DNA from: Streptomyces gossypii
Lineage (GTDB): Bacteria > Actinomycetota > Actinomycetes > Streptomycetales > Streptomycetaceae
Reading direction: 5' to 3'
Length of the DNA stretch: 64,000 nucleotides
NCBI RefSeq assembly: GCF_025165795.1
Contig: NZ_JAJAGO010000002.1
Coordinates: forward strand, 453,663 to 517,662
A model generated the notes under the pieces. That model did not search any database and was not told the origin of the DNA. It saw nothing but the letters and a program-made list of their open reading frames with translations. Shown here piece after piece: positions 2,488-19,079 of this stretch (position 1 is the first letter of the stretch; every line of letters starts with the position of its first letter). A program made the translations under genes and the position numbers.

Positions 2488-2495
2488 CCCGCCGC

Positions 2496-2621: not shown

Positions 2622-2991
2622 GGCGGTGTACTCCTTGGCTGGCTCGGATCGGGCTGGCTCGGATCGCCGTGCGTGACGAAGGCTCTCCCCTCCAGCCAAG
2701 ACCGGCACGCGGCGCTGCGCGAGCCGGGTTGCTGCGTCGGGGTGACGACGGACCCCAGGGCCTCTTTGGCGCGGGCCCTATGCGGCGGGCATCCGCACCC
2801 GGCGGGCGGCGGTGCCCGACGGGCGGCCGGGAGCCGGAGCGGCGAGACTGGACGAACCGCCCGGTCCCGGCCTGGTGCCGCGGCCGGCAAGGTCTGCCCT
2901 GTAGCGCCGCCCTGCACGCACGCTCCTCGACGGGCAGACATTGCCGGTCACGGCACTGGCACCCCCGTCCCGTCGGCTCGGAGACGCCCCG
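2622..2991. other. Intergenic region with a 15-bp direct repeat
   Basis: 370 nt between the small membrane protein and the antiporter. It contains two adjacent copies of GGCTGGCTCGGATCG at 2637-2651 and 2652-2666. The rest is GC-rich and I see no convincing gene. It presumably carries both divergent promoters, but no clear -10/-35 pair stands out. Confidence 0.6.
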
Positions 2992-5376: not shown

Positions 5377-5382
5377 ACGCCT

Positions 5383-6741
5383 GTGCACGACACCACCGCC
5401 CTGCTCATCGAACTCGGAACGCTCATCCTCGGCTTGGGCATCCTCGGCAGATTCGCCGTGCGGATCGGATTCTCCCCGATCCCGCTGTACCTGCTCGCCG
5501 GACTCGCCTTCGGCCACGGCGGTCTGCTGCCGATGGGCGCCAGTGAGGAATTCGTCGCCACCGGTGCGGAGATCGGCGTCATCCTGCTGCTGCTCCTGCT
5601 CGGTCTGGAGTACAGCGCCTCCGAACTGGTCACCACCCTCAAGACCCAGTATCCGTCGGGCGCGGTCGACTTCGTACTGAACGCGACGCCCGGAGCCGTG
5701 GCGGCGTTCCTCCTCGGCTGGGGTCCGGTGGCGGCGGTGGCGCTGGCGGGGGTCACCTGGATCTCGTCCTCGGGTGTCATCGCGAAGGTGCTCGGCGACC
5801 TGGGCAGGCTCGGTAACCGCGAGACGCCCGTCGTCCTCGGCGTCCTCGTCCTCGAGGACCTGGCGATGGCGGTCTACCTGCCGGTCCTCACCGCACTGCT
5901 GGCCGGGGTGAGCCTGGCGGGCGGCAGCCTCACCGTGCTGATCTCACTGACCACGGTCGGCGCCGTGCTCTATGTCGCGCTGCGGCACGGGCGGCTGATC
6001 AGCAAGGCCGTCTCCTCCGACAACCCGGAGATGCTGCTGCTCGTCGTGCTCGGACTGACGCTGCTGGTGGCCGGAGTCGCCCAGGACCTCCAAGTCTCCG
6101 CGGCCGTCGGCGCGTTCCTCGTCGGCATCGCGCTCTCCGGCGAGGTGGCGGAGGGCGCCTACCAGCTGATGACCCCGCTGCGGGACCTGTTCGCCGCCGT
6201 CTTCTTCGTCTTCTTCGGGCTGAGCACCGACCCGGAGCAGATTCCGCACGTCCTGGTGCCCGCGCTGATCCTGGCGGCCGTCTCGGTGTGCACCAAGGTC
6301 GCCACCGGCTGGTACGCGGCGCGGCGGGCCGGGATAGGCGTCAAGGGCCGGTGGCGTGCGGGCGGAACGCTGGTGGCGCGTGGCGAGTTCTCCATCGTCA
6401 TCGCCGGGCTGGCGGTCGGGAACGAGCCCCGCCTCGGCCCACTGGCCACCGCGTATGTGCTGATCCTGGTCATCCTCGGCCCGTTGACCGCGCGCTGGAC
6501 GGAACCGCTGATGCGGCGCGTCACCAAGCCGGGCGAGCCGGTGAGCCTGGCCAAGGCGGACCGGCCGAAGGGCGGCGCGGACCCGGCGCTGGCACCGGAC
6601 CCGGCACGCGAGGACGCGTCCGCGTCCGCGTCCGGTGAAGCGGTCTCCGCGACGCGCGAGGGGGCGACTTCCGCGGAGCCTGGCGGCGCCGGACCCAAGG
6701 GGCTCAGCGGCCCCGCTGGCCCGGCCGGTGCGCACGGCTGA
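5383..6741 (+). CDS. CPA2 family cation/proton antiporter (KhtU-like)
   Basis: 452 residues; the GTG at 5383 uses GGAGGA that overlaps the end of the preceding gene. About 12-13 membrane helices span residues 5-385, with the Na_H_Exchanger pattern (LLLLLGLEY, LVLEDLAMA, and ARGEFSIVIAGL near residue 330). Unlike KefB/KefC there is no cytoplasmic RCK domain after the last helix; the ~70-residue tail is Ala/Pro/Gly-rich and low in complexity. Gating is therefore expected from the separate KhtT-like subunit just upstream. Likely role: potassium or sodium efflux and pH homeostasis. Confidence 0.9.
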   Translation: MHDTTALLIELGTLILGLGILGRFAVRIGFSPIPLYLLAGLAFGHGGLLPMGASEEFVATGAEIGVILLLLLLGLEYSASELVTTLKTQYPSGAVDFVLNATPGAVAAFLLGWGPVAAVALAGVTWISSSGVIAKVLGDLGRLGNRETPVVLGVLVLEDLAMAVYLPVLTALLAGVSLAGGSLTVLISLTTVGAVLYVALRHGRLISKAVSSDNPEMLLLVVLGLTLLVAGVAQDLQVSAAVGAFLVGIALSGEVAEGAYQLMTPLRDLFAAVFFVFFGLSTDPEQIPHVLVPALILAAVSVCTKVATGWYAARRAGIGVKGRWRAGGTLVARGEFSIVIAGLAVGNEPRLGPLATAYVLILVILGPLTARWTEPLMRRVTKPGEPVSLAKADRPKGGADPALAPDPAREDASASASGEAVSATREGATSAEPGGAGPKGLSGPAGPAGAHG

Positions 6742-6795
6742 CGTCCGGCCGGACGGACCCGAGCCGCCGCTGGCGCGCCCTCCGCTTCGAATCCG

Positions 6796-6987
6796 TCAGA
6801 CGTGCGACCCCACCGCGTGTCCGGTGAACGCGGCCCACGCGCGGGGGGAGACGGCCAGCGGGCGCCGGTCGGTGTCCTTGGAGTCGCGAATGAGGACGGC
6901 CTCGGGGCGTATGGCGATCTCGACGCAGTTGCCGCCCCCACCCCCGCTGTAGCTGCTCTTGAACCAGTTCGGTTCGGTGGTGCCCAT
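6796..6987 (-). CDS. DUF397 domain protein
   Basis: 63 residues with the DUF397 signature: WFKSSYSGGGGGNCVEIA, then a central VLIRDSKD and a C-terminal WAAFTG. The ATG at 6987 has GAGGAG upstream. In Streptomyces these small proteins usually sit next to an XRE/DUF5753 regulator, but none is present here, so this looks like an orphan copy. A complete pair is found at 44.1-45.2 kb. The 291 nt upstream (6988-7278) show no recognisable gene. Confidence 0.88.
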   Translation of the reverse strand: MGTTEPNWFKSSYSGGGGGNCVEIAIRPEAVLIRDSKDTDRRPLAVSPRAWAAFTGHAVGSHV

Positions 6988-7278
6988 AGTGCTCCTCTCG
7001 CATCCCGATTACCGACGGTTACCGATCCGGTCCACAGGGTGCACCAGTGCAGTCCGATCTGTACGGGTGGCGTGCCTCCCGAACACGGCGTTTACGCCGT
7101 GAAGCTGACCGCATGACCGCATGACCGCCCCACACCCCCAAACCCCCGTCACCGTACGTACGTTCGCGCAGCGGCTCCCGTCGACCAGTCCCTGCGGCTC
7201 GCCTGCGAGGGTGCGCAAGACGGCGCGAGGACGCACGGCGTCGTACGGATCGAGCGGTTGCTCCATCGGGCGACGGGG

Positions 7279-7554
7279 TCAGCCGCCTCCTCCGCCGCCG
7301 CCCCCGCCGTCTCCGCCTCCGGAGCCACCTCCGCCGCCGTCCCCGCCGAAGCCACCTCCGCCGTCGCTGCCGCCATCTCCCCCTCCCCAGCCGTCACCGC
7401 TGGCCCCCGGGCCGGAGTCGGAGGAGCCGGTGACCCACCGTCTGCCCCACGCCTCGGAGTCGTCCCGGTCGCTCAACTGGTCCCGGGCGCTGAACCGCAG
7501 AGTGCCGGTGCTGTCGCCCAGACCGAACGACACCGCGAGAGTGTGGTCGCTCAT
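7279..7554 (-). CDS. Small protein with Gly-rich C-terminal tail, unknown function
   Basis: 91 residues from the ATG at 7554. Residues 1-45 look like an ordinary small domain (MSDHTLAVSFGLGDSTGTLR, then a Trp-containing stretch). The second half is almost pure Gly with scattered Ser and Asp, probably disordered. The ribosome-binding site is weak. The opposite strand reads as a Pro-rich ORF that is probably only the shadow of the Gly tract. Function unknown. Confidence 0.5.
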   Translation of the reverse strand: MSDHTLAVSFGLGDSTGTLRFSARDQLSDRDDSEAWGRRWVTGSSDSGPGASGDGWGGGDGGSDGGGGFGGDGGGGGSGGGDGGGGGGGGG

Positions 7555-7739
7555 TCGGGCCCCCGGTTGGCGGTACTCAGGGGAAGGACGCCCGCACCAT
7601 GGCGGCGGTTGCATCCGCTTCCGGCGAGGGGGGCGGGCTGGGTGCGGGCCTGGCAGGCCGTTGCGCAGGGCGACAACCGCCGAGGATTCACACGTCTGAA
7701 CCAGTGGCGGGCAGTCCGTCGATTGGCGATCATTCCGCT

Positions 7740-8654
7740 ATGACTGCAGAGATGATCGACGCGGCGGCATCGGGTACCTGGAAGCTCGGCGACCTGGAGG
7801 TCAACCGGATAGGTTTCGGCGCGATGCGGCTGGCGCAGGACGGTGAGGCGCTCAAGGCCGACGCCGCTTCCAGCCCTCGCGCTCGGGCGATCAGCGTGCT
7901 GCGCCGCGCGGTGGAGTTGGGTGTGAACCACATCGACACAGCCGCCTTCTACTTCTCGCCGCTGCGTTCCGCCAACGAACTGATCAACTCGGCGCTGGCG
8001 CCCTACCCGGACGACCTGGTCATCACCACCAAGGTCGGGCCGGGACGGGACGCGGCGGGCCAGTGGCAGACCCACGCCCGCACGCCGGAAGGGCTGCGCG
8101 GCCAGGTCGAGGAGAATCTGCGCCAGTTGGGCCGTGACCACCTCGACGTGGTGAACCTGCGCATCGTCGGAAGCGACTCGATCGCTGAGCGATTCGGCGC
8201 GCTGGCCGAACTGCGCGAGGCCGGTCTCATCCGCCATCTGGGCATCTCCAACGTCACCGCCGCGCACCTCGCCGAGGCGCAGGCCATCGCGCCGGTCGTC
8301 TGCGTCCAGAACCCGTACGGCATCGGTGTCCGCCCCGAAAGCGACGATTTCGTGCGCGGCTGCGGGGAAACGGGCGTCGCGTTCGTGCCGTTCTACGCGA
8401 TCGCCGGTGCCGGGCGGGAGGCGGGCGCGAGCGGTACCGAAAGCGACGAGGTGCTTGCCGTCGCGCGCGCCCACGAAGTCAGCACCGCCCAAGTCCGGCT
8501 GGCATGGACCCTCCAGCGCGGACCGCACGTCCTGGCGATCCCCGGCACCGGCAATCCGGACCACCTGACCGCCAACATAGCCGCCGGCGCACTGCGCCTC
8601 ACCGAGGACGAACTGACTCTTCTGGACTCCCTCCACCAGCGCGACAGGCGGTGA
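7740..8654 (+). CDS. Aldo/keto reductase family oxidoreductase
   Basis: 304 residues; ATG 7740 chosen because the homologous region begins there and upstream codons look random. TIM-barrel AKR features: GFGAMRL at the start, HIDTAAFYF with the catalytic Asp and Tyr, TTKVG with the Lys, LGISN, and QNPYGIG. The position that usually holds the catalytic His reads VVNLRIVG, so His seems absent, a variant I believe occurs in other actinobacterial members. A C-terminal IPGTGNPDHLTAN stretch fits NADPH binding. Substrate unknown. The last 56 nt overlap tail-to-tail with the helicase gene. Confidence 0.9.
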   Translation: MTAEMIDAAASGTWKLGDLEVNRIGFGAMRLAQDGEALKADAASSPRARAISVLRRAVELGVNHIDTAAFYFSPLRSANELINSALAPYPDDLVITTKVGPGRDAAGQWQTHARTPEGLRGQVEENLRQLGRDHLDVVNLRIVGSDSIAERFGALAELREAGLIRHLGISNVTAAHLAEAQAIAPVVCVQNPYGIGVRPESDDFVRGCGETGVAFVPFYAIAGAGREAGASGTESDEVLAVARAHEVSTAQVRLAWTLQRGPHVLAIPGTGNPDHLTANIAAGALRLTEDELTLLDSLHQRDRR

Positions 8655-10740
8655 GCGGCGCCGGAAGCGGGCGGCGGTGCAGGATGTCGAGGCGGGAGAC
8701 CGCACGGGTCAGCACCACGTAGAGCCGGTTGAGGCCCCGCGGTTCGGCCTCCACGATCGCCGCGGGCTCCACCACGACCACATGGTCGTACTCCAGCCCC
8801 TTGGCCTCGGTAGCCGCCAGGACGGTGACACGGGGGGCGCCTCCGAGTTCCCCGGCGCCGGGGCCGGTGGTGTCGATGCCCGCCGCGCCGAGGGCCTCGC
8901 GCAGCGAAGCCACGTCAGGTCCGTGCGCGATGACGCCGATGGACCCCTCCCGCGCGAGGGCCGCCCGCACGGCCGCGACGGTGTCCGGGGCCAACTCCGC
9001 GATACGGCGCAGGGAGAGCTCACCGCCGCGCCGCAGCGAACGGGCCGCCGGAAACTCGGCGGGGAAGGACCCCAGCAGCCGGTTGGCCAGTGCGAGGATC
9101 TCCTCCGGGACACGGAACCCGGTGCTCAGCGGGATCACTGCGGCCTCGGCTATGCCCAGATGGGCCAGGTGGCCGGACCAGGCGCGGGCGGCCCAGGGAG
9201 TGGTGCCCTGCGCGAGGTCACCCAGCACCGTCAGCGAGCCGAAGCCGGCTCGGCGCGCGATCGCGCGGCACTGCATGGGCGACAGGTCCTGTGCCTCGTC
9301 GACCACCACATGCCCGTAGCCCGCAGGGCGTTCGATCAGCCCGGCGAGCTCGTCCAGCAGTACCAGATCAGCCGCCGACCACCGCGCGGTGCGCCACGAG
9401 CGCGGCGGTTCCGCCCAGCACAGCGCCCGCTGCTCGTCCGGCTTCAGGATGCCGTCAGCCGCGACGGCGAGCGCCTCCGCACCGCCCAGCAGCGCGGCGA
9501 GGATCTCCTCCGGCTGCACCTTGGGCCACACCCCGTCGACGAAGGCGGAAACCGGCCGCGCCCGGCCCATCCGGCGCAGCCACTCGCCGCCCCGCGGGCC
9601 CGCACGGCGCTCCGCCTGCTGGTGCAGCAGCCGGGCGACCCGCGCCCGTACGCGCTCGCGCCCCACCGCGTACGGCGGCTGCTCCGCGCGGACCTCGGCG
9701 ACGATCCTGGCGAGCTCCCCGGTGGTCACCCGCCAGCGGTAGGAGCCGTCGGGCACCTCCACCGGGCCGCACGCGCGAGCGACCCGCCCGTACAGCGCAC
9801 GGCGCAGCACCCGCGCCATCCGGGCGTCGTGCTTGACCGACGCCGCCGTCTCGCCGTCGACCGCCCGCACCGGGTGGCGGGCGATCTCCTCGTCCACCGT
9901 GGACTGCCGCACCCCGCTCTCGCCGAGCGAGGGCAGTACATCGGCGATGTAGGCCAGGAACGCCGGGTTGGGTCCGAGGATCAGCAGTCCGGCGCGCTGG
10001 ATGCGCCGGGGGTGGGTGTAGAGCAGATACGCGGCGCGGTGCAGCCCGACGGCGGTCTTTCCGGTGCCCGGTGCGCCCTGGACGCACAGCGAGGTCTCCA
10101 GGCCGGCGCGGACCAGGTCGTCCTGCTCGGGCTGGATGGTCGCGGCGATGTCGCGCATGGGGCCGACGCGTGGGCGCTCGATCTCGCTGCGGAGGATGCT
10201 GCCGGGGCTGCCGCCGCTGCCTGCGTCGCTGCTGCCGCTGCCGCTGCCGGAGCCTGCGTCGGTGCCGGGGCCCGTGAGGTGTTCGTCCTCCAGACTCGTC
10301 AGATCCTCCGGAGAGCCGTCGCTCCATGGAGCCCAGCCGAACCGGCGGCGCACCTCGACACCCTGCGGGGCCCGCGCACTCGCCTGGTAGAACGCACGGG
10401 AAACGGGGGCACGCCAGTCGATGACGAGCGGCGGCGCGGCCTCCCGCTCGGTGATGCGGCTGCGGCCCACGTAGTAGCGCTGGCCCCGGTGGTCTCCCGA
10501 GGCCGGGCCGCTCCCGTAGTCGAGGCGGCCGAAGAAGAGGGGACGCTCCGGCTCCTCCAGGAGCCGCTTGGCGTGGCTGCGCAACTGGTGGCCGAGGGTT
10601 TCGGCGTCCGCGCCGGAGGCGGAGACGTCCGCACCCGTGACGACACGCGCCTCCGCGCCCTCGGCCATGGCTGCTCTGGCGGCACGGCAGAGCTGGTGGT
10701 GGGCTCGTTCGCTGCTGAGTTCCCGGTCGAGTGAGGTCAC
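8599..10740 (-). CDS. HelD-like UvrD/SF1 helicase, probable RNA polymerase recycling factor
   Basis: 713 residues from GTG 10740. Walker A GAPGTGKTAV lies near residue 245, Walker B is VVDEAQDLSP, and C-terminal SF1 motifs include ATEAKGLEYDHVVV and RLYVVLTRA. The N-terminal ~190 residues form the extended arm typical of HelD, followed by a Ser/Gly linker. HelD proteins bind RNA polymerase, open its clamps and release it from DNA; the Streptomyces relative HelR gives rifamycin tolerance. Whether this one does so is inference. No purine-rich site precedes the start, and a -10 element lies 7 nt before the GTG, so the message is probably leaderless. Confidence 0.87.
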   Translation of the reverse strand: MTSLDRELSSERAHHQLCRAARAAMAEGAEARVVTGADVSASGADAETLGHQLRSHAKRLLEEPERPLFFGRLDYGSGPASGDHRGQRYYVGRSRITEREAAPPLVIDWRAPVSRAFYQASARAPQGVEVRRRFGWAPWSDGSPEDLTSLEDEHLTGPGTDAGSGSGSGSSDAGSGGSPGSILRSEIERPRVGPMRDIAATIQPEQDDLVRAGLETSLCVQGAPGTGKTAVGLHRAAYLLYTHPRRIQRAGLLILGPNPAFLAYIADVLPSLGESGVRQSTVDEEIARHPVRAVDGETAASVKHDARMARVLRRALYGRVARACGPVEVPDGSYRWRVTTGELARIVAEVRAEQPPYAVGRERVRARVARLLHQQAERRAGPRGGEWLRRMGRARPVSAFVDGVWPKVQPEEILAALLGGAEALAVAADGILKPDEQRALCWAEPPRSWRTARWSAADLVLLDELAGLIERPAGYGHVVVDEAQDLSPMQCRAIARRAGFGSLTVLGDLAQGTTPWAARAWSGHLAHLGIAEAAVIPLSTGFRVPEEILALANRLLGSFPAEFPAARSLRRGGELSLRRIAELAPDTVAAVRAALAREGSIGVIAHGPDVASLREALGAAGIDTTGPGAGELGGAPRVTVLAATEAKGLEYDHVVVVEPAAIVEAEPRGLNRLYVVLTRAVSRLDILHRRPLPAPLTACRAGGGSPEESVRPR

Positions 10741-10760
10741 GGGAGGAAGGATAGCAAAAA
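10741..10760 (-). promoter_or_regulatory. Leaderless promoter of the HelD-like gene
   Basis: On the minus strand TATCCT (10748-10753) ends 7 nt before the GTG, placing transcription start at or next to the start codon. The sequence in between is pyrimidine-rich and carries no Shine-Dalgarno. Upstream is an unusual A/T-rich stretch with two runs of T; no good -35 is evident. Confidence 0.6.
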
Positions 10761-10805
10761 ACGTTACCGGGTTAAAAAATTGACCGAGTCTCTTGCCGGT
10801 CCCCG

Positions 10806-11483
10806 TCAGGCGTACTGGCCGAGCCCGGACCGCAGCTGGCCGAAGGCGAGGTCGGCGTCCTGGACGGCCTGCGGGAAGGCCGCTTCCGCCGTTCGACCGG
10901 CGTGGATGCGGGCCCAGTTCTGCTCCGCGAGAATGCGCTGAGCTGCGATGATCTGTCCGCCAGCCAGTCGCGCCGTGAGGTCGTCCGACGCCACAGGCGC
11001 CAGCGCGTCGGCCAGCGCCTGCTCCGAACGGTCCAGATACGCGTGCAGCCGGGCGACCAGGCTCGGCGTGCTGTACAGCAGGCCGTGGAACTCCAGCACC
11101 CGCGGCTCGTCGTTCAGTCCGGTCACCGGATCGTGCCGGTCCAGCGCCTCCCGGAAGTGCCGGTGCAGCGCCGCCAGTGGTGAGCGGCCGGCGGCCCGGC
11201 CCGCCGCCACGACACGGGCGGCCTCGTCCTGGTGGTCGGCGAAGCGGTGCAGCGCCAGATCCTCCTTGGCCGGGAAGTAGCGGAAGAGCGTGGGCTTGGA
11301 GATCTCGGCCGCCGCGGCCACCTCGGCTACGGACACATGCTCGAACCCCTTCTCGAGGAAGAGGGTGATCGCGGTGTCGGAGACCGTCTGGTACATCCGC
11401 TGCTTCTTCCGCTCCCGCAGGCCCGTCAGGCTCGCGCCCGTGTCACCGCCCCCGCCACCGCGTCTGTCGCCACTTTTGCCCAT
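10806..11483 (-). CDS. TetR family transcriptional regulator
   Basis: 225 residues. The N-terminal ~20 residues are Gly-rich, then a TetR helix-turn-helix spans about 24-75 (TLFLEKGFEHVSVAEVA, ISKPTLFRYFPAKEDL). The C-terminal ligand domain is divergent, with RVLEFHGLLYSTPSLVARL resembling the second domain of regulators that control efflux or oxidoreductases. Target unknown. It lies 26 nt downstream of the kinase of the vWA/PP2C operon on the same strand. It also has its own -10 (TAGCCT, 6 nt from the ATG) and a short palindrome, so it may be expressed separately as a leaderless, self-controlled gene. Confidence 0.9.
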   Translation of the reverse strand: MGKSGDRRGGGGGDTGASLTGLRERKKQRMYQTVSDTAITLFLEKGFEHVSVAEVAAAAEISKPTLFRYFPAKEDLALHRFADHQDEAARVVAAGRAAGRSPLAALHRHFREALDRHDPVTGLNDEPRVLEFHGLLYSTPSLVARLHAYLDRSEQALADALAPVASDDLTARLAGGQIIAAQRILAEQNWARIHAGRTAEAAFPQAVQDADLAFGQLRSGLGQYA

Positions 11484-11489
11484 ACGGGA

Positions 11490-11512
11490 AGGCTACGACC
11501 TGACGGACGTCA
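11490..11512 (-). promoter_or_regulatory. Leaderless promoter and palindrome before the TetR gene
   Basis: TAGCCT on the minus strand (11490-11495) ends 6 nt before the ATG. Just upstream TGACG-GA-CGTCA (11501-11512) is a two-fold symmetric 12-mer overlapping the kinase stop codon. Its position suits an autoregulatory operator; this is inference. Confidence 0.45.
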
Positions 11513-12484
11513 TGAGGCCCGGCCCGGTGGGTGGAGGGGGATGGAGCCGCGGGGGCGGGCGGAGTCCAGGACGGAGGGGTCCGGGGCCGGGCGCGGGCGG
11601 GGTGCGGGGGCCCGGTTCAGTTTGATGGTGTCGCGAGGGGAAAGCGCTGTGCGCCACTCCGCGAGGGTGGGCCGGGAGCCGTATGCGCCGTCCGCCTCGG
11701 CAAGACGTCTGCGTACGGCGCCCTCCTGCCGGTCGTCCAGCTCGCCCGGCACCAGCGCGGGCGGCTTCCCGGGGGAGGCGTAGGCGTCGCGCGTGAGGAT
11801 GCGGACGACGGCCAGCGCCGCCTTGTAGCGGTCGCTGTCCACGGTTGCCGTGCCGGGCGTGGCCAGCGGGTCGTGCCAGTCCGGGGTTTCGGCCTGGGCG
11901 AGCACGGGGTCGCTGCCGGTGGTACGGAAGCCGTCGCAGTCCAGCAGATAGACGGCGGCCTGCGGGCGTACCGTCCACAGGACGTTGGCTTGTGAGACAT
12001 CGCCCAGCACCAACTGCAGGTTGTGCAACCGTTCGACCAACTCGACGAGCGCGAGGGCCAGTTCACGCCGCTGCCCGGCGGCGGGCTGGACGACGTCCTG
12101 CCAGGCCGGGCGTGGGGCCCGCAGCAGGAACTGGAGTTCGGTCAGCTTGGCCGCGCCACTGGGAGCGCGCCAGGTCATCGATGAGGGCGCCCGGTGCATC
12201 AGGAAGCCCGCCGTACGGTCACCGCGGCCGCCGTCCACCACCCGGCACAGCGGCCAAGCGGTCTGTGCGTCGAGCCGGGCCCGCCGCTCCGGCGGCAGCG
12301 CGCGGCGTACGCGGACGAGGGCGGCCAGCGAGTGCCCGTTCACCCTTTCCGGCGCGCGGTAGCTCTTGTACAGCAACGTGTCGTGGCCGCGTACGGCGAG
12401 CACTTCGCCCTGGCCGCCGTCGCCGATCTTCTCGCCGGTCGCCAGCGTGGCCAGCGGGACGTCCGCACCGTCGTCGGCGCTCAC
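11510..12484 (-). CDS. YegI-like protein kinase of a TerY phosphorylation triad
   Basis: 324 residues from GTG 12484, whose GTGA overlaps the stop of the phosphatase gene, implying translational coupling. A glycine loop GDGGQGEVLAV lies near residue 22, followed by LLYKSY with a candidate ATP-binding Lys. The catalytic loop is LVLGDVSQANVLW, replacing the usual HRD with GDV but keeping the Asp and Asn. The metal-binding motif is DCDGF instead of DFG. These are features of the divergent YegI-like kinases that accompany TerY and PP2C proteins. The C-terminal ~60 residues are Pro/Arg-rich. Likely partner: the vWA protein encoded two genes upstream. Confidence 0.82.
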   Translation of the reverse strand: MSADDGADVPLATLATGEKIGDGGQGEVLAVRGHDTLLYKSYRAPERVNGHSLAALVRVRRALPPERRARLDAQTAWPLCRVVDGGRGDRTAGFLMHRAPSSMTWRAPSGAAKLTELQFLLRAPRPAWQDVVQPAAGQRRELALALVELVERLHNLQLVLGDVSQANVLWTVRPQAAVYLLDCDGFRTTGSDPVLAQAETPDWHDPLATPGTATVDSDRYKAALAVVRILTRDAYASPGKPPALVPGELDDRQEGAVRRRLAEADGAYGSRPTLAEWRTALSPRDTIKLNRAPAPRPRPAPDPSVLDSARPRGSIPLHPPGRAS

Positions 12485-13617
12485 GGGGCCGCGACCCCTT
12501 CCCACAGACAGATCACCGTACGGTCGTCGTCGTACGACTTGACCCTGGTCTGCGCCTGCCACAGGAAGTCGGCGGGCTGCGGCACGGCCGCACCGGAGCC
12601 CCAGTGAGCGGCCAGCAGGCGGCGCAGCTCCGGGTTGCCCGTGAGGGGGCCTTCGAGGCCGTCCGTGCACAGGACGAGGACGTCGCCGGGCTCGGAGGGG
12701 GCGAGCAGACTGGTGGTGACCCGGTCGTACGCCGCGGGGAGCGCGGCCGTCCTGGTGTCGATGATGTCCTGACTGTGCGGAGTGCTCCGGTCGTACGAGG
12801 GGTGGGGTCCGTGCGCGCTGTGGAGGGCGTGCGAGTCCTCCGGACCACCGCCCCTGATGCTGTGCCAGCCGTCGGGCCGCAGCCGGAAGAGGCCGCCGTC
12901 GCCCACGGCGAAGAAGCCGCGTACCCGCACCTCCGGATCGAGCGGCACCAACAGGGCACGCAGTGTTGTGGCGTACTGCTCCGGGCGCTCGGACGGCCGG
13001 GTCCGCCGCAGCCGCGCCGCGGCGAGGTCCACGGCGTCCTCGACCAGCGTCCGGAGAGCGCCCGCGTCCTCGGCGCGCAGCGCGGCGGCCAGTTGGCCCG
13101 CCACGCGGTCCAGGCACTGGGCGGCCATGGCGACCATCCCGTGCGATCCGCGGTGCGACAGGGGCGCGGAGCCGACGCCGTCCGCGACGGCCAGCAGAAG
13201 CAGCCCGTCCTCGGTCGTGTCCGTTGCTGTGGCTGTGGCTGGCGAGCTGGTGGGGCCGATCCGGATCACGCCGAGCGCGTCCTGGCGGCACTCGTGCAGA
13301 TGACGATGGGCGTCGCCGCGTACGGAGGCGCCGCGCACGGTCAGCGGCCCGTACGAACCGCCGTCCAGCTCGATGTCGGGGAGCGTGGCGCCGTACCAGT
13401 CGCCACCGTTGACCGAGGGGGCGCCCGAGGGCGCGGGCGGATAGCTCGGCGGGCGGGCGCCGATGTGCTGGGGGACACCGCGCGGCTCGGTCGGCTCGGG
13501 TGCCGCACGGCGCGGGCGCAGCGACTCCCGCAGATTCGGCGGCAGATCTTCGAGCAGGCCGTCGGAGGGGTCACCTCCGGCTTGGTGCCGGTCGCCGTAC
13601 TGACTGTCCTGGTGCAT
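12481..13617 (-). CDS. PP2C-type serine/threonine phosphatase of the triad
   Basis: 378 residues. The first ~95 are Pro/Gly-rich and probably disordered. The catalytic domain follows with the PPM metal-binding pattern: CRQDALG, VADGVGS, AVGDGGLF, VLCTDGLEG and a terminal YDDDRTVICL. The Asp residues that bind the two metals are all visible, so it should be active. It starts 18 nt after the vWA gene and overlaps the kinase gene by 4 nt. In known TerY triads the phosphatase opposes the kinase on a shared target. Confidence 0.9.
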   Translation of the reverse strand: MHQDSQYGDRHQAGGDPSDGLLEDLPPNLRESLRPRRAAPEPTEPRGVPQHIGARPPSYPPAPSGAPSVNGGDWYGATLPDIELDGGSYGPLTVRGASVRGDAHRHLHECRQDALGVIRIGPTSSPATATATDTTEDGLLLLAVADGVGSAPLSHRGSHGMVAMAAQCLDRVAGQLAAALRAEDAGALRTLVEDAVDLAAARLRRTRPSERPEQYATTLRALLVPLDPEVRVRGFFAVGDGGLFRLRPDGWHSIRGGGPEDSHALHSAHGPHPSYDRSTPHSQDIIDTRTAALPAAYDRVTTSLLAPSEPGDVLVLCTDGLEGPLTGNPELRRLLAAHWGSGAAVPQPADFLWQAQTRVKSYDDDRTVICLWEGVAAP

Positions 13618-13635
13618 GCCTTGCCCCCTGGGCGG

Positions 13636-14301
13636 TCAGAGCTTGTCGAGAGAGACCGTGCTGAATCCTGGCACGGTGTCGTCCACGGCGAGGGTGAACC
13701 CGGAACCTCCGTCGGCCGGGATGCTGCCCGCCGAGCGCACGATGGACCGGGTGAGGCTGGCCGCGAACTCGCGCAGCGCGGCTGCCGGGGAGACCGAGGA
13801 GTCCTGCTGCATGAAGGCGCGGAAGTTCGCCACCTGGCTGATCGTCGAGGTGTCGGCCTCGCCGATCCCGAAGGCGATGATCTTCGGTCCGTAGCGGGAG
13901 GAGGTCAGCTGCTTGAGCGCCTGCTCCCAGCCGGAGTCGGTGGGCACCCCGTCGGAGAGGAAGAAGGCGACGGGCCGGTAGACCTCGTGGCCCTCGCTCT
14001 TGAGGGCGGCGACGTCCGCTTCGATGCTCTGCTGGAGGGTGTGGAAGGCACTTCCGTACGAGGTGATGCCTCCGGCGGTGAGTGCGGGCAGCTCCTCCAG
14101 CTCGCTGAGGTCCACGAGCGGCTGGAGGACCGTGGCGTCGTCCGAGAACCCGATCAGGGCGAACCGGGTCTTGTCGGCCACGGTCGGATTGGTGCTGATC
14201 TCCTGATGCAGCTCGGGCAGGGCGGAGTTGATGGCGTCGATCGGCGGGCCGCCCATGGAGCCGGATTCGTCGCACACCATGTAGAAGGGCAGAATTTGCA
14301 C
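13636..14301 (-). CDS. TerY-like von Willebrand factor A domain protein
   Basis: 221 residues, essentially a single vWA domain, from a GTG at 14301 with a strong GGAGGAA site. The MIDAS residues are intact: CDESGSMGG (DxSxS) at the start, a Thr in GGITSYGSA, and Asp in FFLSDGVPTD. TerY proteins act as cytoplasmic metal-binding scaffolds in tellurium-resistance/stress systems and are often coupled to a PP2C phosphatase and a kinase, exactly as here. The gene follows the small membrane protein by 56 nt. Confidence 0.92.
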   Translation of the reverse strand: MQILPFYMVCDESGSMGGPPIDAINSALPELHQEISTNPTVADKTRFALIGFSDDATVLQPLVDLSELEELPALTAGGITSYGSAFHTLQQSIEADVAALKSEGHEVYRPVAFFLSDGVPTDSGWEQALKQLTSSRYGPKIIAFGIGEADTSTISQVANFRAFMQQDSSVSPAAALREFAASLTRSIVRSAGSIPADGGSGFTLAVDDTVPGFSTVSLDKL

Positions 14302-14357
14302 GGAAGTTCCTCCAGGTGAGGGGTTGTTCGTCGTTCAGGGGCAGGGGGCCGCGGGGA

Positions 14358-14855
14358 TCAGCGGGTGAAGAAATAGATCTCCAGATCCGCGTGTCCGACG
14401 GATCCGCCGAGATCCATGAAGTCGCGGGTCGTCGTCTTCTCGAACATCGCCGGACGGGCCTCGTCCAGCAGCGAGTTGACCCGGTGGGCGTAAGCGATGC
14501 CCGCTCGCGCCTCCCGGGTGCGGCCGAAGGTGAGGACGATGGCCGCCTTGCGGCCTCCGTACTTCTGCGTGACCTCGCGCAGCTCGCGGACGATGCGCTT
14601 GCGGTCGGAGGAGGCCGCGTCGATCGACACCTTCACCGGCTCGCGCTCCACGGAGCGCGGCCCGGTCGGGGTCGGAGACGGGGAGGGCGACGCGGAAGGG
14701 GAGGGAGAAGGCGACTTGGAGGCATCCCCGCGAGCGGCCTCCCTGGCCTTCACCGGGTCTCCCTGGTCGCCCATGGAGACGAGGGCGAGCACGAGCAGCA
14801 TGTCCGCGAACAGCCAGCCCGCGAGGTGCAGTGGATTCAGCCCGCGGCCCCTCAC
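14358..14855 (-). CDS. MotB/TolR/ZorB-like single-span membrane protein
   Basis: 165 residues from GTG 14855, which overlaps the upstream stop as GTGA. One membrane helix near the N terminus reads HLAGWLFADMLLVLALVSMG; the Asp (residue 18) followed by M-L-L-V-L closely resembles the TolR/ExbD/MotB helix whose Asp carries protons. A Ser/Pro linker (about 45-70) leads to an alpha/beta domain of ~95 residues (VKVSIDAASSDRK, KAAIVLTFGRT, HADLEIYFFTR) presumably outside the membrane. It would pair with the long coiled-coil protein encoded immediately upstream. The assignment rests on topology and this motif; no search was run. Confidence 0.65.
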   Translation of the reverse strand: MRGRGLNPLHLAGWLFADMLLVLALVSMGDQGDPVKAREAARGDASKSPSPSPSASPSPSPTPTGPRSVEREPVKVSIDAASSDRKRIVRELREVTQKYGGRKAAIVLTFGRTREARAGIAYAHRVNSLLDEARPAMFEKTTTRDFMDLGGSVGHADLEIYFFTR

Positions 14856-16252
14856 CGGGGCTCCGCGACACTGCCGGGGCGGCCATCGAACACGTCTGCC
14901 GGATGGTCCTGCCCCTCCGGGTGTCGGCCGCCACCGTGCACGTCGGTACGGGCGGACCCGTCCCGCTGCTGCGCGCGGGCGCCCGCGCGCTCTTCGGCAC
15001 GTATCCACTCCTCCGCGCGCGTCCGCTCCTCCAGGCGCAGCCGCAGCCGTACCGCGAGCTCCAGTTCGGCGAACCGTTCCGCGGCCGTGCGCAGGGCGTC
15101 GGTCTGCTCGTTGAGTTGGCGCGAGGTCTCCTGGGAGGCGGTGACGGCCGCCGCGGTCTGCTCGGCTACCTCGCTGAGCCGGGTCAGTGTCCGCCCCGTG
15201 AGGTCTGCGGCCACCTCGGTGCTGGTGGTGAACGACCGCTGCGAGGCGTTCAGCGCGCTGAGCGCGTCCTCGACCCTGACCCCCGCCTCGTGCAGTTGTG
15301 TGCCTATCTCGCCGTTGACCGTGTGGATCTCGCCGAGCGCCTCGGTGACCGAACTGCCGTTGTCCCGCACGGCCCCCTCCACCGCCGCACGCACCTGGTC
15401 GAGCGTCTTGTCGAGCGCGTTGCCGTGGTGGCGCACCGCGGTGTCGATCCGGTCGGCCGCATCCGCCAGCGGGCGGACCGCGGCGTCGGCGCGCCGCAAC
15501 CGCTTCTCGGCAACGGTCACCGAATCCCCCACCTGCTTGGCGGTCTTCTCCAGCGAGACCTGCACCTTGACGGCCTTGTCGGTGAGGCTGGTCAGGGTGT
15601 CCGCCGCCTTGGCCAGCTCCCCGCTGAACCGGCTGGGAGAGGTCAGCCGTTGCTCGTTCAGCTGCAACTGCGCCCGGACGAGCACCGGGACGAGCTTCGC
15701 GAGCAGATCCTCACCGCTGGCCCGGGCCGTCTCCTCCGCACGGTCGACCGCCACGCGGCGCATCCCGTGCAGGGCCGCGCAGCCCAGCAGCAGCACGATG
15801 GCAGTGGTGGCGGAGCCGGCGACATGGCCGAAGGTGAACCAGCCGGACAACTCCCCCTCGAAGCCGGTCTGCCACAGCTGGAGGAACGGACGGCCCGCGT
15901 GCTTCGCGTCCTTCTCGATCAGCGATTCGTACGCGTTGGACGCTCGGGTCAGCCCTAGCCAGGTGAGCAGCAGCGGCACGAAGACCAGCGCACCGAGCCC
16001 GGCCTCCAGCCAGCGCCAGAAGGGTTGTTCGGCCGGGGTGCGGGTCGCGGAGCGTACGCTCTCGGGCCGCGCGTATGCCTGGACGAGGTCCAGTTCCGTC
16101 CATGGAGCGAGGGCCTCGGTGTCTGTTCCGTCACTCAGCGCCTTCGCCAGCGTGTCGAGTTCGTCCTGCCGGGATTTCAGACCCGGATCCTGAGCAAGCT
16201 CGGCGAGCTCCTCGCCGACCTGCTGACGTGCCGTAAGTGCCCTGGCCAGCAT
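14852..16252 (-). CDS. MotA/ZorA-like membrane protein with long coiled-coil tail
   Basis: 466 residues from the ATG at 16252 (GGGGGTGG upstream; further upstream codons look spurious). An N-terminal soluble helix region of ~75 residues is followed by two membrane helices near 79-101 and 141-163. Then about 250 residues are heptad-like and rich in Ala, Glu, Thr and Arg (roughly 165-420), a predicted coiled coil that should project into the cytoplasm. The C-terminal 45 residues are charged and Gly/His-rich. This matches ZorA in outline, a two-part membrane base plus cytoplasmic tail, though MotA/ExbB usually show three or four helices. A methyl-accepting-type sensor is an alternative reading of the coil. 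Confidence 0.6.
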   Translation of the reverse strand: MLARALTARQQVGEELAELAQDPGLKSRQDELDTLAKALSDGTDTEALAPWTELDLVQAYARPESVRSATRTPAEQPFWRWLEAGLGALVFVPLLLTWLGLTRASNAYESLIEKDAKHAGRPFLQLWQTGFEGELSGWFTFGHVAGSATTAIVLLLGCAALHGMRRVAVDRAEETARASGEDLLAKLVPVLVRAQLQLNEQRLTSPSRFSGELAKAADTLTSLTDKAVKVQVSLEKTAKQVGDSVTVAEKRLRRADAAVRPLADAADRIDTAVRHHGNALDKTLDQVRAAVEGAVRDNGSSVTEALGEIHTVNGEIGTQLHEAGVRVEDALSALNASQRSFTTSTEVAADLTGRTLTRLSEVAEQTAAAVTASQETSRQLNEQTDALRTAAERFAELELAVRLRLRLEERTRAEEWIRAEERAGARAQQRDGSARTDVHGGGRHPEGQDHPADVFDGRPGSVAEPR

Positions 16253-16672
16253 GCCACCCCCATGAAAACACCCGGGGGAACAAGGTGTCCGGCCATGCTC
16301 TCCCGAGGCAGCCCAGCAGATGAGCTCCCCGTCGCGGCACCGTGTTCGCCACTGGCGAGGATCACTGATGGTAGCCCACCCTTCACCCGTTCGGCATAGA
16401 CTTCGGGACCCCCGGATCGAGGCCCGCCGCAGGGCGGCTGATGCGGAAGGGGCGGCAGGGACATGGGCACCGGAGGGGACGGCGGGAGCGCGGCAAGGAG
16501 GCGAGGACACCGGACGGTCGTTCGCGAGGACGGATTCCGCTGCGCCCAAAAGGCGCTGGTGCGGCACCTCGCGAAGCGCAACTCCAGGCACGGCTCGGGT
16601 GGTCGGGCGGGAGCCGCGCGAGTGCGGATGCCGGACCCGGTACGGGGAGCCCGGTCCTGAGTCTGGGGCTGT
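16253..16672 (-). promoter_or_regulatory. Promoter region of the stator/TerY operon
   Basis: 420 nt between divergent transcription units. On the minus strand TACCAT (16368-16373) is a plausible -10, giving a leader of about 110 nt before the ATG at 16252; no strong -35 is visible. No gene is convincing in this stretch. Confidence 0.35.
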
Positions 16673-17843
16673 ATGGCGGCGTACACCGACGGGAGCGCGA
16701 CGGCGGTACAGGCGCTGGGCAGCACCTTCGGCTCGCTCAGCTCGTGGCCGTATCTCACCCTCGACCAGGACGACGACACCCCGGCCGGGGAGTTGCTGCG
16801 GGTGAACCTGGCGTTCACGACGGCCTTCCGCCGGCTCCTCTTCCATGTCTGCGTGGGAGAAACGATTGCGGCCGTGCCGTCCGGCTTCCGTGGCCTCGGC
16901 GCGACGGTGACCATCACCGCGCCCGGAGCGGGCAGCGGGCGCATCGCACTCGACGAGGCACCCCGGGAGGCGACGGCGTGCGCCGTGGCAGAGGCCGTGA
17001 CCGAGGGCATGCGAACGAGGCGCTGTCCGCGACGGCGCCGGTAACGTCCCCTGGACTCGCGGGGCTTGGGGCCGGCCCGGCGGCGGACGAGCTGCGGGAC
17101 GCGCTGCTGGCGGAGTGCCGCTACCGGGCCGGGCAGCCGTCCACGGGCCTGTGGCAGGTGGCCGACCACTGCCGGGAGGGCCGCTACGACGCGGTTCGCA
17201 AGTCGCTCCGGCACCTCACCGCCCTGGACGGTACAGCCTCCGATGCTCTGGGCACCTGGCACACCTGCCGCGCCGTCCGCTGCCACCGCCGCTGCCACGC
17301 CGGACCCGTGCACCGGCGACGCCGCCGGACACCGCGCCGAGTTCGACCGTCTGATCGGCATCGAGCTGGGCGAGGCTGCCAGTGGTGAGACCCATGTCGC
17401 CACCCGCCTGGGCACGCTCGGCAGGCAGGTCTGCGACCTGCTGCTCCCCCCGCCCCTGAGCGCCTGCATCCGCCAGGCGCAGAAGCGGGCGCAGAAGCAG
17501 AAGCGCGGCAGGCAGCAGCGCACCGCGAGCGGCCTGCGGCTGAGCTTCAGCCTGCCCGGCGCGCTGGTCGGCCTGCCGGTCGAGACCCTGACGCCGAGCG
17601 CTGGCTGCTGTGCGCCTACCATCACGACCCGACGAACGTACGGCTACGCCAACTGCTGGCCGAACGGCTCTACGAGTACGCGCTGTTGCTCCAGGAGCAG
17701 GTGACCGGCCCAAGGCGCTGGCCGCGCTCAGGAGGTGTGTGGGCTGGGGGCCCGAGCACCGCGCGGCCCATGAACTCCTCACCCGGCTCACCCGGAAGGG
17801 CGCGGGCCGCCGCGACATCGGGCCCCACGGGCAGCCAGGCTGA
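16673..17843 (+). pseudogene. Frameshifted ORF divergent from the stator/TerY operon
   Basis: Protein-like sequence runs through 16673-17843 but only by changing frame about four times. It starts at 16673 (MAAYTDGSATAVQALGSTFG), shifts near 17015 to a frame reading ADELRDALLAECRYRAGQ, and returns near 17270 (FDRLIGIELGEAASGET). It shifts again at 17588-17590 to DAERWLLCAYHHDPTNVRLR, and near 17705 to KALAALRRCVGWGPEH, ending at a TGA at 17841-17843. Two of the shifts are explained by one missing base each. The mix of charged helices in the second half suggests an alpha-helical protein of perhaps 380 residues. Family not recognised. It is either decayed or affected by sequencing errors. Confidence 0.6.
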
Positions 17844-17881
17844 GACCACGACCGTGCGCGACCGCCCGTACCGGCCACGAC

Positions 17882-17920
17882 GGCGTCCGCGCCCCGCCGT
17901 TGGTGGCGGGGCGGGACGCC
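17882..17920 (+). terminator. GC-rich hairpin terminator
   Basis: GGCGTCC-GC-GCCCCGCC pairs with GGCGGGGC-GGGACGCC around GTTGGT, followed by TTT. It ends the frameshifted ORF 38 nt after its final stop, which suggests a real transcription unit once existed there. Confidence 0.7.
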
Positions 17921-18581
17921 TTTCGCGGGCAGGCGTCGGGCACCTGAGGTACGGCCCCTCGGCGCCGATCCTGCCGGGACCAGGCGGTCGTGGAGAAGCA
18001 GACCGAGTCCTCGCGCGGATCGCCGCGCTCACGCCTCCGCCCTCCCCTGCTCCCCGTGATTTCCGCCAATTGGTGCCGCAGTTGTTCTTCGGTGCCCCGC
18101 ATCATGACGCATTGCCGCGTGAATTGAGTTGCGCGCGACGGAGTGGCTCCTCGACGGCTGAATCTCATCTCCTCCTCGAAACGCGCGTATTTTCGAATCA
18201 CCAGGGCCGAGGTGTGACCGGCGAGCCTCCGGGCGGTCCCGGACCGGACAGGAAGAGAGGGCCGAGGCGCTGAGCCAGAAGATCAGCGCTCCCTGGCAGG
18301 GCCGCGAAAGACTGATCCGTTCACGCTACCGGTACCGGTCGTACACTTTTACGCCCGACGAGGAGCCGGACGCGAACCCGTGGCCTATGGCATTTCGTGT
18401 GCGGTCTGTGAAGAATCCGGACCGACGGAACTTATCGGGGCCGATGGCCGTCCGGGTATTCCGGCGTCTCCAGAGAACACACAGCATCTGAGCAGCATGT
18501 GACCTACCGTTCGCCGCCTGTCCTTCCGTATCGTGCGGTTCCGGGCGTGTGGAAATGAAGAAGCCGCAGAAAGGAAGAGTC
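17921..18581. other. Intergenic region, relatively AT-rich
   Basis: About 660 nt with lower GC than the surroundings, especially 18050-18540. Open frames here (for example minus 17788-18201) lack a codon pattern like that of neighbouring genes and I do not call them. The right end carries the promoter of the Nudix gene; no clear -35/-10 pair was identified. Confidence 0.5.
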
Positions 18582-19079
18582 ATGAACGAGGGTACGGATC
18601 TCGCCACCCCGCCTCGCCGGAGGATCGGCGCGCTGGCCGTCATCAGGGAGGAAAGCGGAGCAGTTCTCCTGGTGAAACCACGCTACAAAAAAGGCTGGAA
18701 TCTACCCGGTGGTGGCGCACACGCCGACGAAATGCCCCATGTGGCCTGCGCACGCGAGGTGCTGGAGGAGACCGGGCTCGAAATCGACGCCTTGCATATC
18801 CTCGCCCTGGACTACGTTCCCGCCAACCCGAGGGAGGGCGCCGCCGAGGGGTACAACTTCGTCTACGACGGGGGAGTTCTCGCCACCGGCACCCCCGTCA
18901 CCCTCCAGCAGAAAGAGTTGAGCGCGTACGCGTGGGTGCCGCTCGACGAACTGCCCGCACACACGGAAGCTCAGCAGGAACGCCGCATCCGGGCATCCCT
19001 CGCGCAGGTCGGCACCGGCGAGACGGCGAACCTCGTCCAGGGCCACCCCGTCGCGGACGAGGACACCCAACCGGCGTGA
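18582..19079 (+). CDS. Nudix hydrolase
   Basis: 165 residues from the ATG at 18582, chosen for the AAAGGAAG site just upstream; GTG 18549 would add 11 residues. The Nudix box is complete: GGAHADEMPHVACAREVLEE followed by TGL fits GX5EX7REUXEEXGU, so it should bind magnesium and cleave a nucleoside diphosphate linked to another group. Residues 25-50 hold the usual strand KPRYKKGWNLPGGG. Substrate unknown. It is followed after 43 nt by the ECF sigma gene on the same strand. Confidence 0.92.
   Translation: MNEGTDLATPPRRRIGALAVIREESGAVLLVKPRYKKGWNLPGGGAHADEMPHVACAREVLEETGLEIDALHILALDYVPANPREGAAEGYNFVYDGGVLATGTPVTLQQKELSAYAWVPLDELPAHTEAQQERRIRASLAQVGTGETANLVQGHPVADEDTQPA

What the first reader, a model, noticed from the sequence alone, without database searches (positions are those of the whole stretch)
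11510..16252. Zorya-like stator pair joined to a TerY/PP2C/kinase triad: candidate new system
Five minus-strand genes run as a unit: a two-helix membrane protein with ~250 residues of coiled coil, a one-helix protein with Asp18 in a TolR/ExbD/MotB-like segment (FADMLLVLALV), a vWA protein, a PP2C phosphatase and a YegI-like kinase. Two junctions overlap as GTGA and the others are 18 and 56 nt. TerY triads (vWA + PP2C + kinase) and ZorA/ZorB pairs are both known separately. I do not recall this combination; it would join a proton-driven membrane sensor to a phospho-switch, plausibly a stress or anti-phage device. The fusion of ideas is inference, and the stator identity rests on topology plus one motif.
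Basis: partly seen in the sequence, partly recalled or inferred. Interest (0 to 1): 0.88.

Follow-up and report, generated by a model that had tools for sequence, protein, structure and literature searches.

The report
Stator-like membrane pair with phospho-switch operon
A five-gene operon in a soil actinomycete couples a membrane protein pair that resembles the ion-driven motors of the Zorya phage-defence system to a protein kinase/phosphatase switch, and in related bacteria the same operon runs straight into two known anti-phage genes, so it probably senses damage at the cell surface and triggers a defence.

Summary
The five genes, their order, spacing and motifs are as described, and they are a real unit: 49 of 87 distinct loci with the membrane pair carry the complete five-gene order (the collection ranked loci by similarity to this pair, which favours this form). 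Gene B has an Asp in its membrane helix kept in 20 of 20 and 21 of 21 homologues (4 genomes shared) in searches that did not select for it, and an OmpA-like outer domain: the MotB/ZorB plan. Gene A has a two-helix, long coiled-coil plan with an invariant Pro and near-invariant Thr but no significant match to MotA/ExbB/ZorA; its stator identity is plausible, not shown. New here: in 7 of 7 complete five-gene loci from Streptosporangiaceae and Thermomonosporaceae the operon continues into BrxD-BrxHI of type-2 BREX, and the kinase carries the C-terminal domain of PglZ. The pair also occurs in other conflict-system contexts (FNIII/GAP1/Hsp70, dynamin, E2/ThiF/CHAT). The kinase-PP2C-vWA triad in GAP1-N2 systems is published; I found no description of the pair, the cassette or its BrxD-BrxHI junction. 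Defence is likely. The effector of the window's own version is unknown; its genome has no BrxD match.

The parts
14852..16252 (-). Gene A: cytoplasmic N-terminus, two-helix hairpin, long coiled-coil tail (466 aa)
   Evidence: (AlphaFold2 mean pLDDT 79.7); membrane helices placed by eye, no topology program run. In 76 of 87 loci it overlaps the next gene by 4 nt.
15923..16009 (-). A, first membrane helix (residues 82-110): P93 and W98 60/60, T97 59/60 (Ser in the other)
   Evidence: conserved residues fall on one helix face (6 of 2000 shuffles as strong).
15758..15832 (-). A, second membrane helix (residues 141-165), running on into the cytoplasmic helix
   Evidence: 2 of 2000 shuffles as strong.
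14963..15637 (-). A, coiled-coil tail (residues about 206-430; parts of low confidence)
   Evidence: weak ZorA matches in PADLOC (best E 0.0019) fall mainly on this part.
14358..14855 (-). Gene B: one membrane helix plus OmpA-like extracytoplasmic domain (165 aa)
   Evidence: (mean pLDDT 84.8; blocks of residues 71-160 at 95-98).
14802..14804 (-). B Asp18 codon, the candidate ion-carrying residue
   Evidence: 20/20 and 21/21, 4 genomes shared; hhalign lines it up with MotB Asp32 and ExbD Asp25.
13636..14301 (-). vWA protein (TerY-like) with complete MIDAS (D11, S13, S15, T80, D117 in 53/53 rows)
12481..13617 (-). PP2C phosphatase with the expected acidic metal ligands kept (D113, D146, D319, D364 in 53/53 rows)
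11510..12484 (-). Divergent Ser/Thr kinase, catalytic residues kept, no zinc ribbon, no PglZ-type C-terminus
   Evidence: (MkoA 7e-8, residues 126-207).
16673..17044 (+). TerD-like gene facing gene A, short and apparently disrupted here
   Evidence: E 9e-34 to a profile of the genes of relatives, present in 24 of 42 Streptomycetaceae loci of this type; that profile resembles TerD (hhalign E 8e-6) but no Pfam model hits it.

Best explanation
The operon encodes an envelope-sensing signalling system. A and B form a membrane complex built and probably working like the ZorA-ZorB/MotA-MotB stator: B brings an OmpA-like extracytoplasmic domain and the ion-binding Asp18, several A subunits surround the B helices with a ring that includes T97, and the A tails bundle into a cytoplasmic rod. 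An event at the wall or membrane (phage entry is the favoured trigger) changes B, ion flow moves or reshapes A, and the rod passes this to the vWA-organised kinase/phosphatase pair, which flips the phosphorylation of an effector. In the Streptosporangiaceae/Thermomonosporaceae versions the effector is the BrxD ATPase-BrxHI helicase pair encoded by the next two genes and probably docked through the PglZ-type C-terminal domain of the kinase. In the window's version the effector is not in the operon and is unknown. SHOWN: gene content, conservation, linkage, a predicted OmpA-like fold, invariant Asp, the BrxD-BrxHI operon. INFERRED: assembly, ion flow, direction of signalling, phosphorylation target, phage as trigger.
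For: Five-gene order in 49 of 87 distinct A+B loci and in 9 of 19 other B loci of a 200-genome family sample. Asp18 in 20/20 and 21/21 (4 genomes shared). B domain: OmpA-like rows lead the list (Z 8.4, rmsd 2.9, 92 aligned; MotB Z 7.4), SiiA periplasmic domain prob 0.99 (E 5e-3). ExbD second and third in a PDB profile search, Asp in register. One-face conservation in both A helices. BrxD-BrxHI directly after the kinase in 7 of 7 complete five-gene loci of Streptosporangiaceae and Thermomonosporaceae plus L123/L124, with the PglZ C-terminal domain on those kinases (gene overlaps). DISARM DrmA-DrmB-DrmC just before gene A in L035. Protein distances of A and B track those of V, P, K (r 0.89-0.95, 47 loci).
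Against: A has no significant match to MotA/ExbB/ZorA by Pfam, PADLOC (mainly the coil), PDB sequence profile, Foldseek or hhalign. B's fold match is near the noise (chorismate mutase Z 7.5; Foldseek E above 1e-3), and B's helix shows no one-face pattern (1501 of 2000 shuffles as strong). No Arg in B's outer domain is invariant. In L123/L124 vWA and PP2C are missing and the kinase has lost its catalytic Asp (sequence), so there the switch cannot work as proposed. The window's genome has no BrxD match, and strong BrxD matches are no commoner in five-gene genomes (2 of 10) than in B-negative ones (2 of 10). Defence-type genes lie near only 5 of 42 Streptomycetaceae loci (controls 0 of 40; one-sided p 0.03, two-sided 0.055) and 0 of 23 FNIII-type loci. 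Upstream flanks of 24 of 48 loci cluster together, which fits a resident locus as well as a defence gene.
Confidence: 0.56

Rival explanations
1. A-B is a passive transmembrane sensor (chemoreceptor-like coiled coil plus an OmpA-like ligand-binding partner) with no ion flow; Asp18 is a structural residue that holds the helices together.
For: A's two-helix plus coiled-coil plan also fits chemoreceptors, which score in the PDB profile search (coil only); no significant stator match for A.
Against: Asp18 near the start of the helix is invariant and lines up with the ExbD and MotB Asp; helix-then-OmpA-like domain is the MotB/ZorB/SiiA order; the genes overlap in 76 of 87 loci, as E. coli motA/motB do.
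Confidence: 0.27
2. The window's five-gene form is a Ter-type general stress (metal or cell-wall) switch, not anti-phage; only the Streptosporangiaceae/Thermomonosporaceae branch was recruited into defence.
For: TerD-like gene faces gene A in 24 of 42 Streptomycetaceae loci; no BrxD match in the window's genome; upstream flanks of 24 of 48 loci cluster together.
Against: 5 of 42 such loci lie beside defence-type genes versus 0 of 40 controls; BrxD-BrxHI lies before gene A, with the TerD-like gene between, in Streptomyces lichenis L084; presence is patchy, 20 of 200 family genomes with a true B.
Confidence: 0.35
3. The A-B pair itself is the effector: the triad phosphorylates it and opens an ion leak that kills or stalls the infected cell.
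For: No nuclease or other obvious effector among the five proteins; the pair occurs in several otherwise different conflict-system contexts.
Against: The loci with BrxD-BrxHI have another candidate effector; the long tail and OmpA-like domain suit sensing better.
Confidence: 0.18

Closest known systems
Zorya ZorA-ZorB (5:2 stator complex of anti-phage systems)
   Same: Neighbouring A and B genes; A with a long cytoplasmic helical tail, B with one helix, an Asp (ZorB D24/D21 in PMC11890865, passages) and an OmpA-like domain; found beside defence genes.
   Different: A has two membrane helices by eye and no detectable ZorA/MotA core; B is not a PADLOC ZorB hit; no ZorC/D/E among the five proteins; effectors differ.
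TerY-P triad (vWA + PP2C + kinase)
   Same: Same three domains in one operon, MIDAS and enzyme active-site residues kept.
   Different: Kinase lacks the C-terminal zinc ribbon described for TerY-P (PMC11090510, passages; two Cys only); joined to a membrane pair.
GAP1-N2 GTPase-centric conflict systems, kinase/PP2C/vWA theme (Kaur et al. 2020, PMC7159879)
   Same: A second set of A-B loci (21 of 87) sits beside an FNIII-like gene and a convergent kinase-PP2C-vWA-GAP1 set (FNIII named from the paper's description, no Pfam hit; some loci are cut before GAP1).
   Different: The window cassette has no GAP1 or FNIII gene beside it; 8 of 10 five-gene genomes have no GAP1-C match. The paper's text holds no MotA, ExbB, TolQ or stator.
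Type-2 BREX (PglZ-BrxD-BrxHI) and Shango (SngB-SngC)
   Same: The Streptosporangiaceae/Thermomonosporaceae cassettes end in BrxD-BrxHI and their kinase bears the PglZ C-terminal domain, reported as a wHTH in type-2 PglZ (PMC12839542, section read).
   Different: A stator-like pair plus vWA and PP2C stand before BrxD-BrxHI, and the PglZ tail is on a kinase; the window's genome has no BrxD match.

Membership tests
Zorya | ZorA with MotA/TolQ/ExbB core | tested here: inconclusive
   No MotA_ExbB for the window protein in Pfam; PADLOC ZorA E 0.0019 mainly on the coil; hhalign E 0.42 and 0.28 though in register.
Zorya | PADLOC ZorB plus ZorC/ZorD or ZorE | tested here: not met
   No ZorB, ZorC, ZorD or ZorE match among the five proteins at E up to 1.
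5:2 ion-driven stator | B subunit: single helix with a conserved Asp | tested here: met
   (whether it is essential was not tested).
5:2 ion-driven stator | B subunit: OmpA-like extracytoplasmic domain | tested here: met
   Predicted model: Z 8.4 OmpA, 7.4 MotB, but unrelated chorismate mutase at 7.5 is within the tie range; Foldseek SiiA prob 0.99, E 5e-3. A moderate match.
5:2 ion-driven stator | A subunit fold with polar ring facing the Asp | tested here: inconclusive
   T97 59/60 and P93 60/60; ExbB only 13th and 18th in Foldseek, E 1.0 and 1.3.
5:2 ion-driven stator | 5:2 assembly and ion flow | not testable with these tools
   No multimer prediction on hand; needs experiment.
TerY-P triad | TerY-like vWA with MIDAS, PP2C, Ser/Thr kinase in one operon | tested here: met
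   the kinase by motifs only, no Pfam Pkinase hit at E up to 1.
TerY-P triad | Kinase fused to a zinc ribbon | tested here: not met
   324-331 aa with two Cys. The OB-fold alternative was not tested.
GAP1-N2 system | GAP1 with DO-GTPase and FNIII protein in the locus | tested here: not met
   No GAP1 or FNIII hit in window 1-36000; the genome's GAP1-C and DO-GTPase2 matches lie on another contig.
Type-2 BREX | BrxD-BrxHI with PglW/X/Y/Z | tested here: not met
   No BrxC/BrxD match in the window's genome. The relatives have BrxD-BrxHI; their PglW/X/Y/Z complement was not tested.

The most novel reading that the evidence does not exclude
A-B is a new family of ion-driven or ion-gated membrane input modules, outside detectable MotA/ExbB/ZorA homology, that actinobacteria plug into at least five kinds of conflict system: the vWA-PP2C-kinase switch with a BrxD-BrxHI effector, the same switch alone, FNIII-GAP1-Hsp70 systems, dynamin/Hsp70-like systems, and YukD/E2-ThiF-CHAT systems. 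It would be a general way in which Gram-positive multicellular bacteria turn surface damage into an intracellular phosphorylation or NTPase signal.
Probability: 0.4. Interest if true: 0.88.

Novelty: new variant of a known kind. Interest (0 to 1): 0.75.

Why it matters
Zorya showed that flagellar-type stators can serve immunity; the stators in the paper I saw are from Gram-negative hosts and drive DNA-attacking effectors (host type recalled). If the reading here is right, a diverged stator-like pair in Gram-positive multicellular bacteria feeds a kinase/phosphatase switch, which would give stator-based surveillance a second output, phosphorylation. The seven-gene operon of L112 and its relatives makes this directly testable, and a kinase that carries the PglZ tail beside BrxD-BrxHI hints at what that tail does in type-2 BREX.

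Tried and rejected
Zorya membership: rejected. ZorA in the family: 4 of 200 genomes, all at model positions 217-340 of 420, taken as coil matches. MotA_ExbB: no match in the window's genome, 53 of 246 phylum genomes. Stator homology of A: the PDB profile with the whole of A showed coil matches in the 60 of 415 rows listed, the ZorA row (8vvn) among them on the tail, and the core alone gave none; Foldseek and VIA were uninformative; Pfam over all 48 A rows lists 25 of 210 families, MotA_ExbB not among those 25. B rows against Pfam: 15 families over 47 rows, none MotB, ExbD or OmpA. TerD Pfam model does not hit the facing gene; the resemblance rests on hhalign. Mobile location: B not in 72,556 plasmid records; the vWA protein has only partial matches in 3 phage records; B was not searched in phages. 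BrxD acting in trans: not supported. Wider spread of B: an alignment search over 396 phylum genomes found only the window's own strongly. Weak B hits hold no GW..D-type motif and were dropped, leaving 20 of 200 true B genomes with the window's own. L052 has a B without an A that I could find. L281 was dropped from the A count as a weak second hit.

Caveats on counts: the genome-contig scan required the pattern [LM][AV]GWLFAD, so Asp conservation in L054-L133 is by construction and is not counted; the counts given come, which share 4 genomes (G000, G076, G095, G198), and B was recognised with a profile that includes pattern-selected rows. The scan kept the best 80 of 111 loci, so it over-represents the window's type. 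Gene calls are from my own simple caller. The 40 control regions were placed by hand at round positions in 10 genomes. The Mantel test does not separate co-evolution from shared species history; L108 and L070 were left out for doubtful gene ends. The tree left out L097, L099, L104 and L125. The order name Streptosporangiales is recalled; the tree output names the families.
Full report
OBSERVATION. Pfam recognises the vWA (6e-12) and PP2C (3e-19) proteins; A has only sub-threshold matches, B and the kinase none. The kinase is divergent (PADLOC MkoA 7e-8 over residues 126-207, NCBIfam LanL 9e-7), but its Gly-loop, Lys, catalytic Asp, Asn and second Asp are kept in 52-53 of 53 rows; the vWA MIDAS and the PP2C acidic ligands are kept too (some genomes are in that set twice; kinase numbering starts 7 codons upstream of 12484). 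The three cytoplasmic parts therefore look active.

IS IT A UNIT? In 200 genomes of the same family, 20 including the window's own have a true B. Of the 19 others, 9 carry the same five-gene order, 5 carry A-B followed by an FNIII-like gene with a convergent kinase-PP2C-vWA-GAP1 set (in one, L046, kinase and PP2C hits share an ORF), 2 carry A-B-FNIII alone, 2 carry A-B with a dynamin-like GTPase and an Hsp70-like protein, and 1 has B alone. A scan of the named genome collection found 111 loci and gave the best 80. Merged, there are 87 distinct loci with A and B (97 before removing duplicates): 49 A-B-V-P-K; 2 cut by contig ends after V (L059, L075); 21 FNIII type (11 with an Hsp70 pair upstream); 2 FNIII only; 2 on short contigs next to Hsp70-type genes (L099, L104); 4 dynamin type; 1 A-B-kinase (L123, with L124 merged into it); 6 others. 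A and B overlap by 4 nt in 76 of 87. Protein distances of A and B track those of V, P and K (47 loci; r 0.89-0.95; 0 of 499 permutations as high). In the A-B tree (83 loci) the FNIII loci form one group (support 93) beside the streptomycete five-gene loci; five-gene loci also occur on deeper branches (Streptosporangiaceae and Thermomonosporaceae, Virgisporangium, Pedococcus), so the five-gene order looks old (long branches make the deepest joins unsure).

IS A-B A STATOR? For B: AlphaFold2 gives one helix that would cross the membrane and a confident domain. Solved structures that resemble it are led by OmpA-like domains (Z 8.4), with TagL 7.8, MotB 7.4 and SiiA 7.2, although chorismate mutase (7.5) shows that the score is near the common background. 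The SiiA periplasmic domain is the only MotB/OmpA-type protein among the 50 Foldseek rows shown, E 5e-3, prob 0.99. A profile of B against all PDB sequences has ExbD second and third (E 0.054, 0.14), with Asp18 on the ExbD Asp; hhalign also places Asp18 on MotB Asp32 (P 0.09) and ExbD Asp25 (P 0.001). Asp18 is invariant in two sets that did not select for it: 20 of 20 and 21 of 21 B genes found beside A genes located by an A-only profile (4 genomes in both). No Arg in the outer domain is invariant, so binding of the wall as in OmpA is open. B's helix shows no one-face conservation.

For A: the predicted plan is cytoplasmic helices, a two-helix hairpin and a second helix that runs into a long coiled coil (which helices cross the membrane was judged by eye). 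P93 and W98 are invariant and T97 nearly so in 60 sequences, and conserved residues lie on one face of each helix. Unaided hhalign lines the first helix up with an ExbB helix so that T97 falls on ExbB Thr148 and G100 on Gly151, but the scores are not significant (E 0.42 and 0.28). Foldseek lists ExbB 13th and 18th (E 1.0, 1.3). PADLOC ZorA matches fall mainly on the coil. So A is stator-like in plan and context; homology is not shown.

WHAT DOES IT DRIVE? The strongest new evidence comes from relatives. In 7 of 7 complete five-gene loci of Streptosporangiaceae and Thermomonosporaceae (L105, L106, L112, L114, L116, L118, L119) the operon continues into BrxD and BrxHI (overlapping or touching genes in L105, L106, L112). 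In the Herbidospora loci L123/L124 BrxD-BrxHI also follows the kinase, with DISARM DrmD and DrmMI on the other side; there vWA and PP2C are missing and the kinase has lost its catalytic Asp, which speaks against the switch being needed in that case. The kinases of these loci carry an extra C-terminal part that matches the end of PglZ (1.1e-19, 5.9e-20, 6.6e-21, 1.8e-17 in L112, L105, L116, L106; 2.8e-24 in L123; found in all 7 by tblastn). A 2026 survey states that type-2 BREX PglZ has a wHTH at its C-terminus and that BrxD and BrxHI are a tightly linked dyad (PMC12839542; section 18 read, passages of others). The kinase thus carries the PglZ tail beside PglZ's usual partners. In Streptomycetaceae, BrxD-BrxHI lies before gene A in L084, with the TerD-like gene between, and DrmA-DrmB-DrmC lies before gene A in L035. 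With 8 query genes from Streptosporangium and Herbidospora only, 5 of 42 Streptomycetaceae loci have a hit against 0 of 40 arbitrary regions (one-sided p 0.03, two-sided 0.055) and 0 of 23 FNIII-type loci: suggestive, not strong. The window gives no such hit, and its genome has no BrxC/BrxD match.

Other contexts: the L133 pair (Anaerolineae) has PP2C, vWA and kinase genes within 9 kb. In L128 an A/B-like pair sits among YukD/E2, ThiF, EAD1 and CHAT genes. In 24 of 42 Streptomycetaceae loci a TerD-like gene faces gene A; in the window it is short and apparently disrupted.

MECHANISM. The most likely reading is an envelope-triggered phospho-switch: A-B senses and perhaps uses the ion gradient, the A tails carry the signal to the vWA/kinase/phosphatase set, and phosphorylation controls an effector (BrxD-BrxHI in the loci named, unknown here). 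Gene content, conservation and linkage are shown; assembly, ion flow and the direction of signalling are inferred.

WHAT IS KNOWN. Kaur et al. 2020 (PMC7159879; passages) describe kinase+PP2C+vWA as one theme of GAP1-N2 systems and note membrane components without naming a stator. TerY-P triads and OB-fold relatives in defence are described (PMC11090510; passages). Zorya stators are described (PMC11890865; passages). In the 2025 MotAB survey the terms Actinobacteri and Streptomyces do not occur (PMC12505986; passages). In the BREX survey MotA, ExbB, OmpA, Zorya, stator, transmembrane, TerY and PP2C do not occur. The listings of eight searches of the held library showed no paper on the five-gene cassette or its junction with BrxD-BrxHI; some of them matched thousands of papers of which 10-20 were listed (41,515,990), so this is a limited check. 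Most subscription papers and preprints are not held, and the 2012 paper on Ter systems (Anantharaman et al.) is known to me only through citations and recall.

VERDICT. A real, conserved, apparently undescribed composite of known parts: a stator-like pair plus a TerY-P-like switch, with a defence output indicated by gene order in one branch and likely but unproven in the window's own.

Noticed in passing
window 16673-17044 (+): TerD-like gene facing gene A, intact-looking in relatives (189 aa in L034) but short and apparently split between reading frames here.
   Followed up: partly
L123 (Herbidospora galbida) 361-15179; L105, L106, L112, L114, L116, L118, L119: A-B(-V-P)-kinase with PglZ-type C-terminus, BrxD, BrxHI; DrmMI and DrmD beside it in L123, whose kinase has lost its catalytic Asp.
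   Followed up: yes
L043/L045 and the other FNIII-type loci: Convergent FNIII and kinase-PP2C-vWA-GAP1 sets with A-B; the DO-GTPase2 model had no hit over its cut-off in the 5 genomes of this type searched (one weak hit elsewhere in G135), so A-B may stand in for the GTPase.
   Followed up: partly
L128 8709-10558: A/B-like pair inside a YukD/E2, ThiF, EAD1 and CHAT gene cluster with a weak GTPase match.
   Followed up: partly
L133 (Anaerolineae) 8565-18733: A-B pair with PP2C, vWA and a canonical Ser/Thr kinase gene nearby: the same kit outside Actinobacteria.
   Followed up: partly
L036-L042 (same family): The cassette sits on either side of a Sir2-like gene in related genomes, as if it had moved or inserted twice at one spot (Sir2 named from recall of its motifs).
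   Followed up: no
window 56937-57434 (+): A TerD-family match elsewhere in the window, one of 17 in this genome.
   Followed up: no
G000 contig C47:305362-310287: A separate GAP1 plus DO-GTPase2 locus in the window's genome.
   Followed up: no
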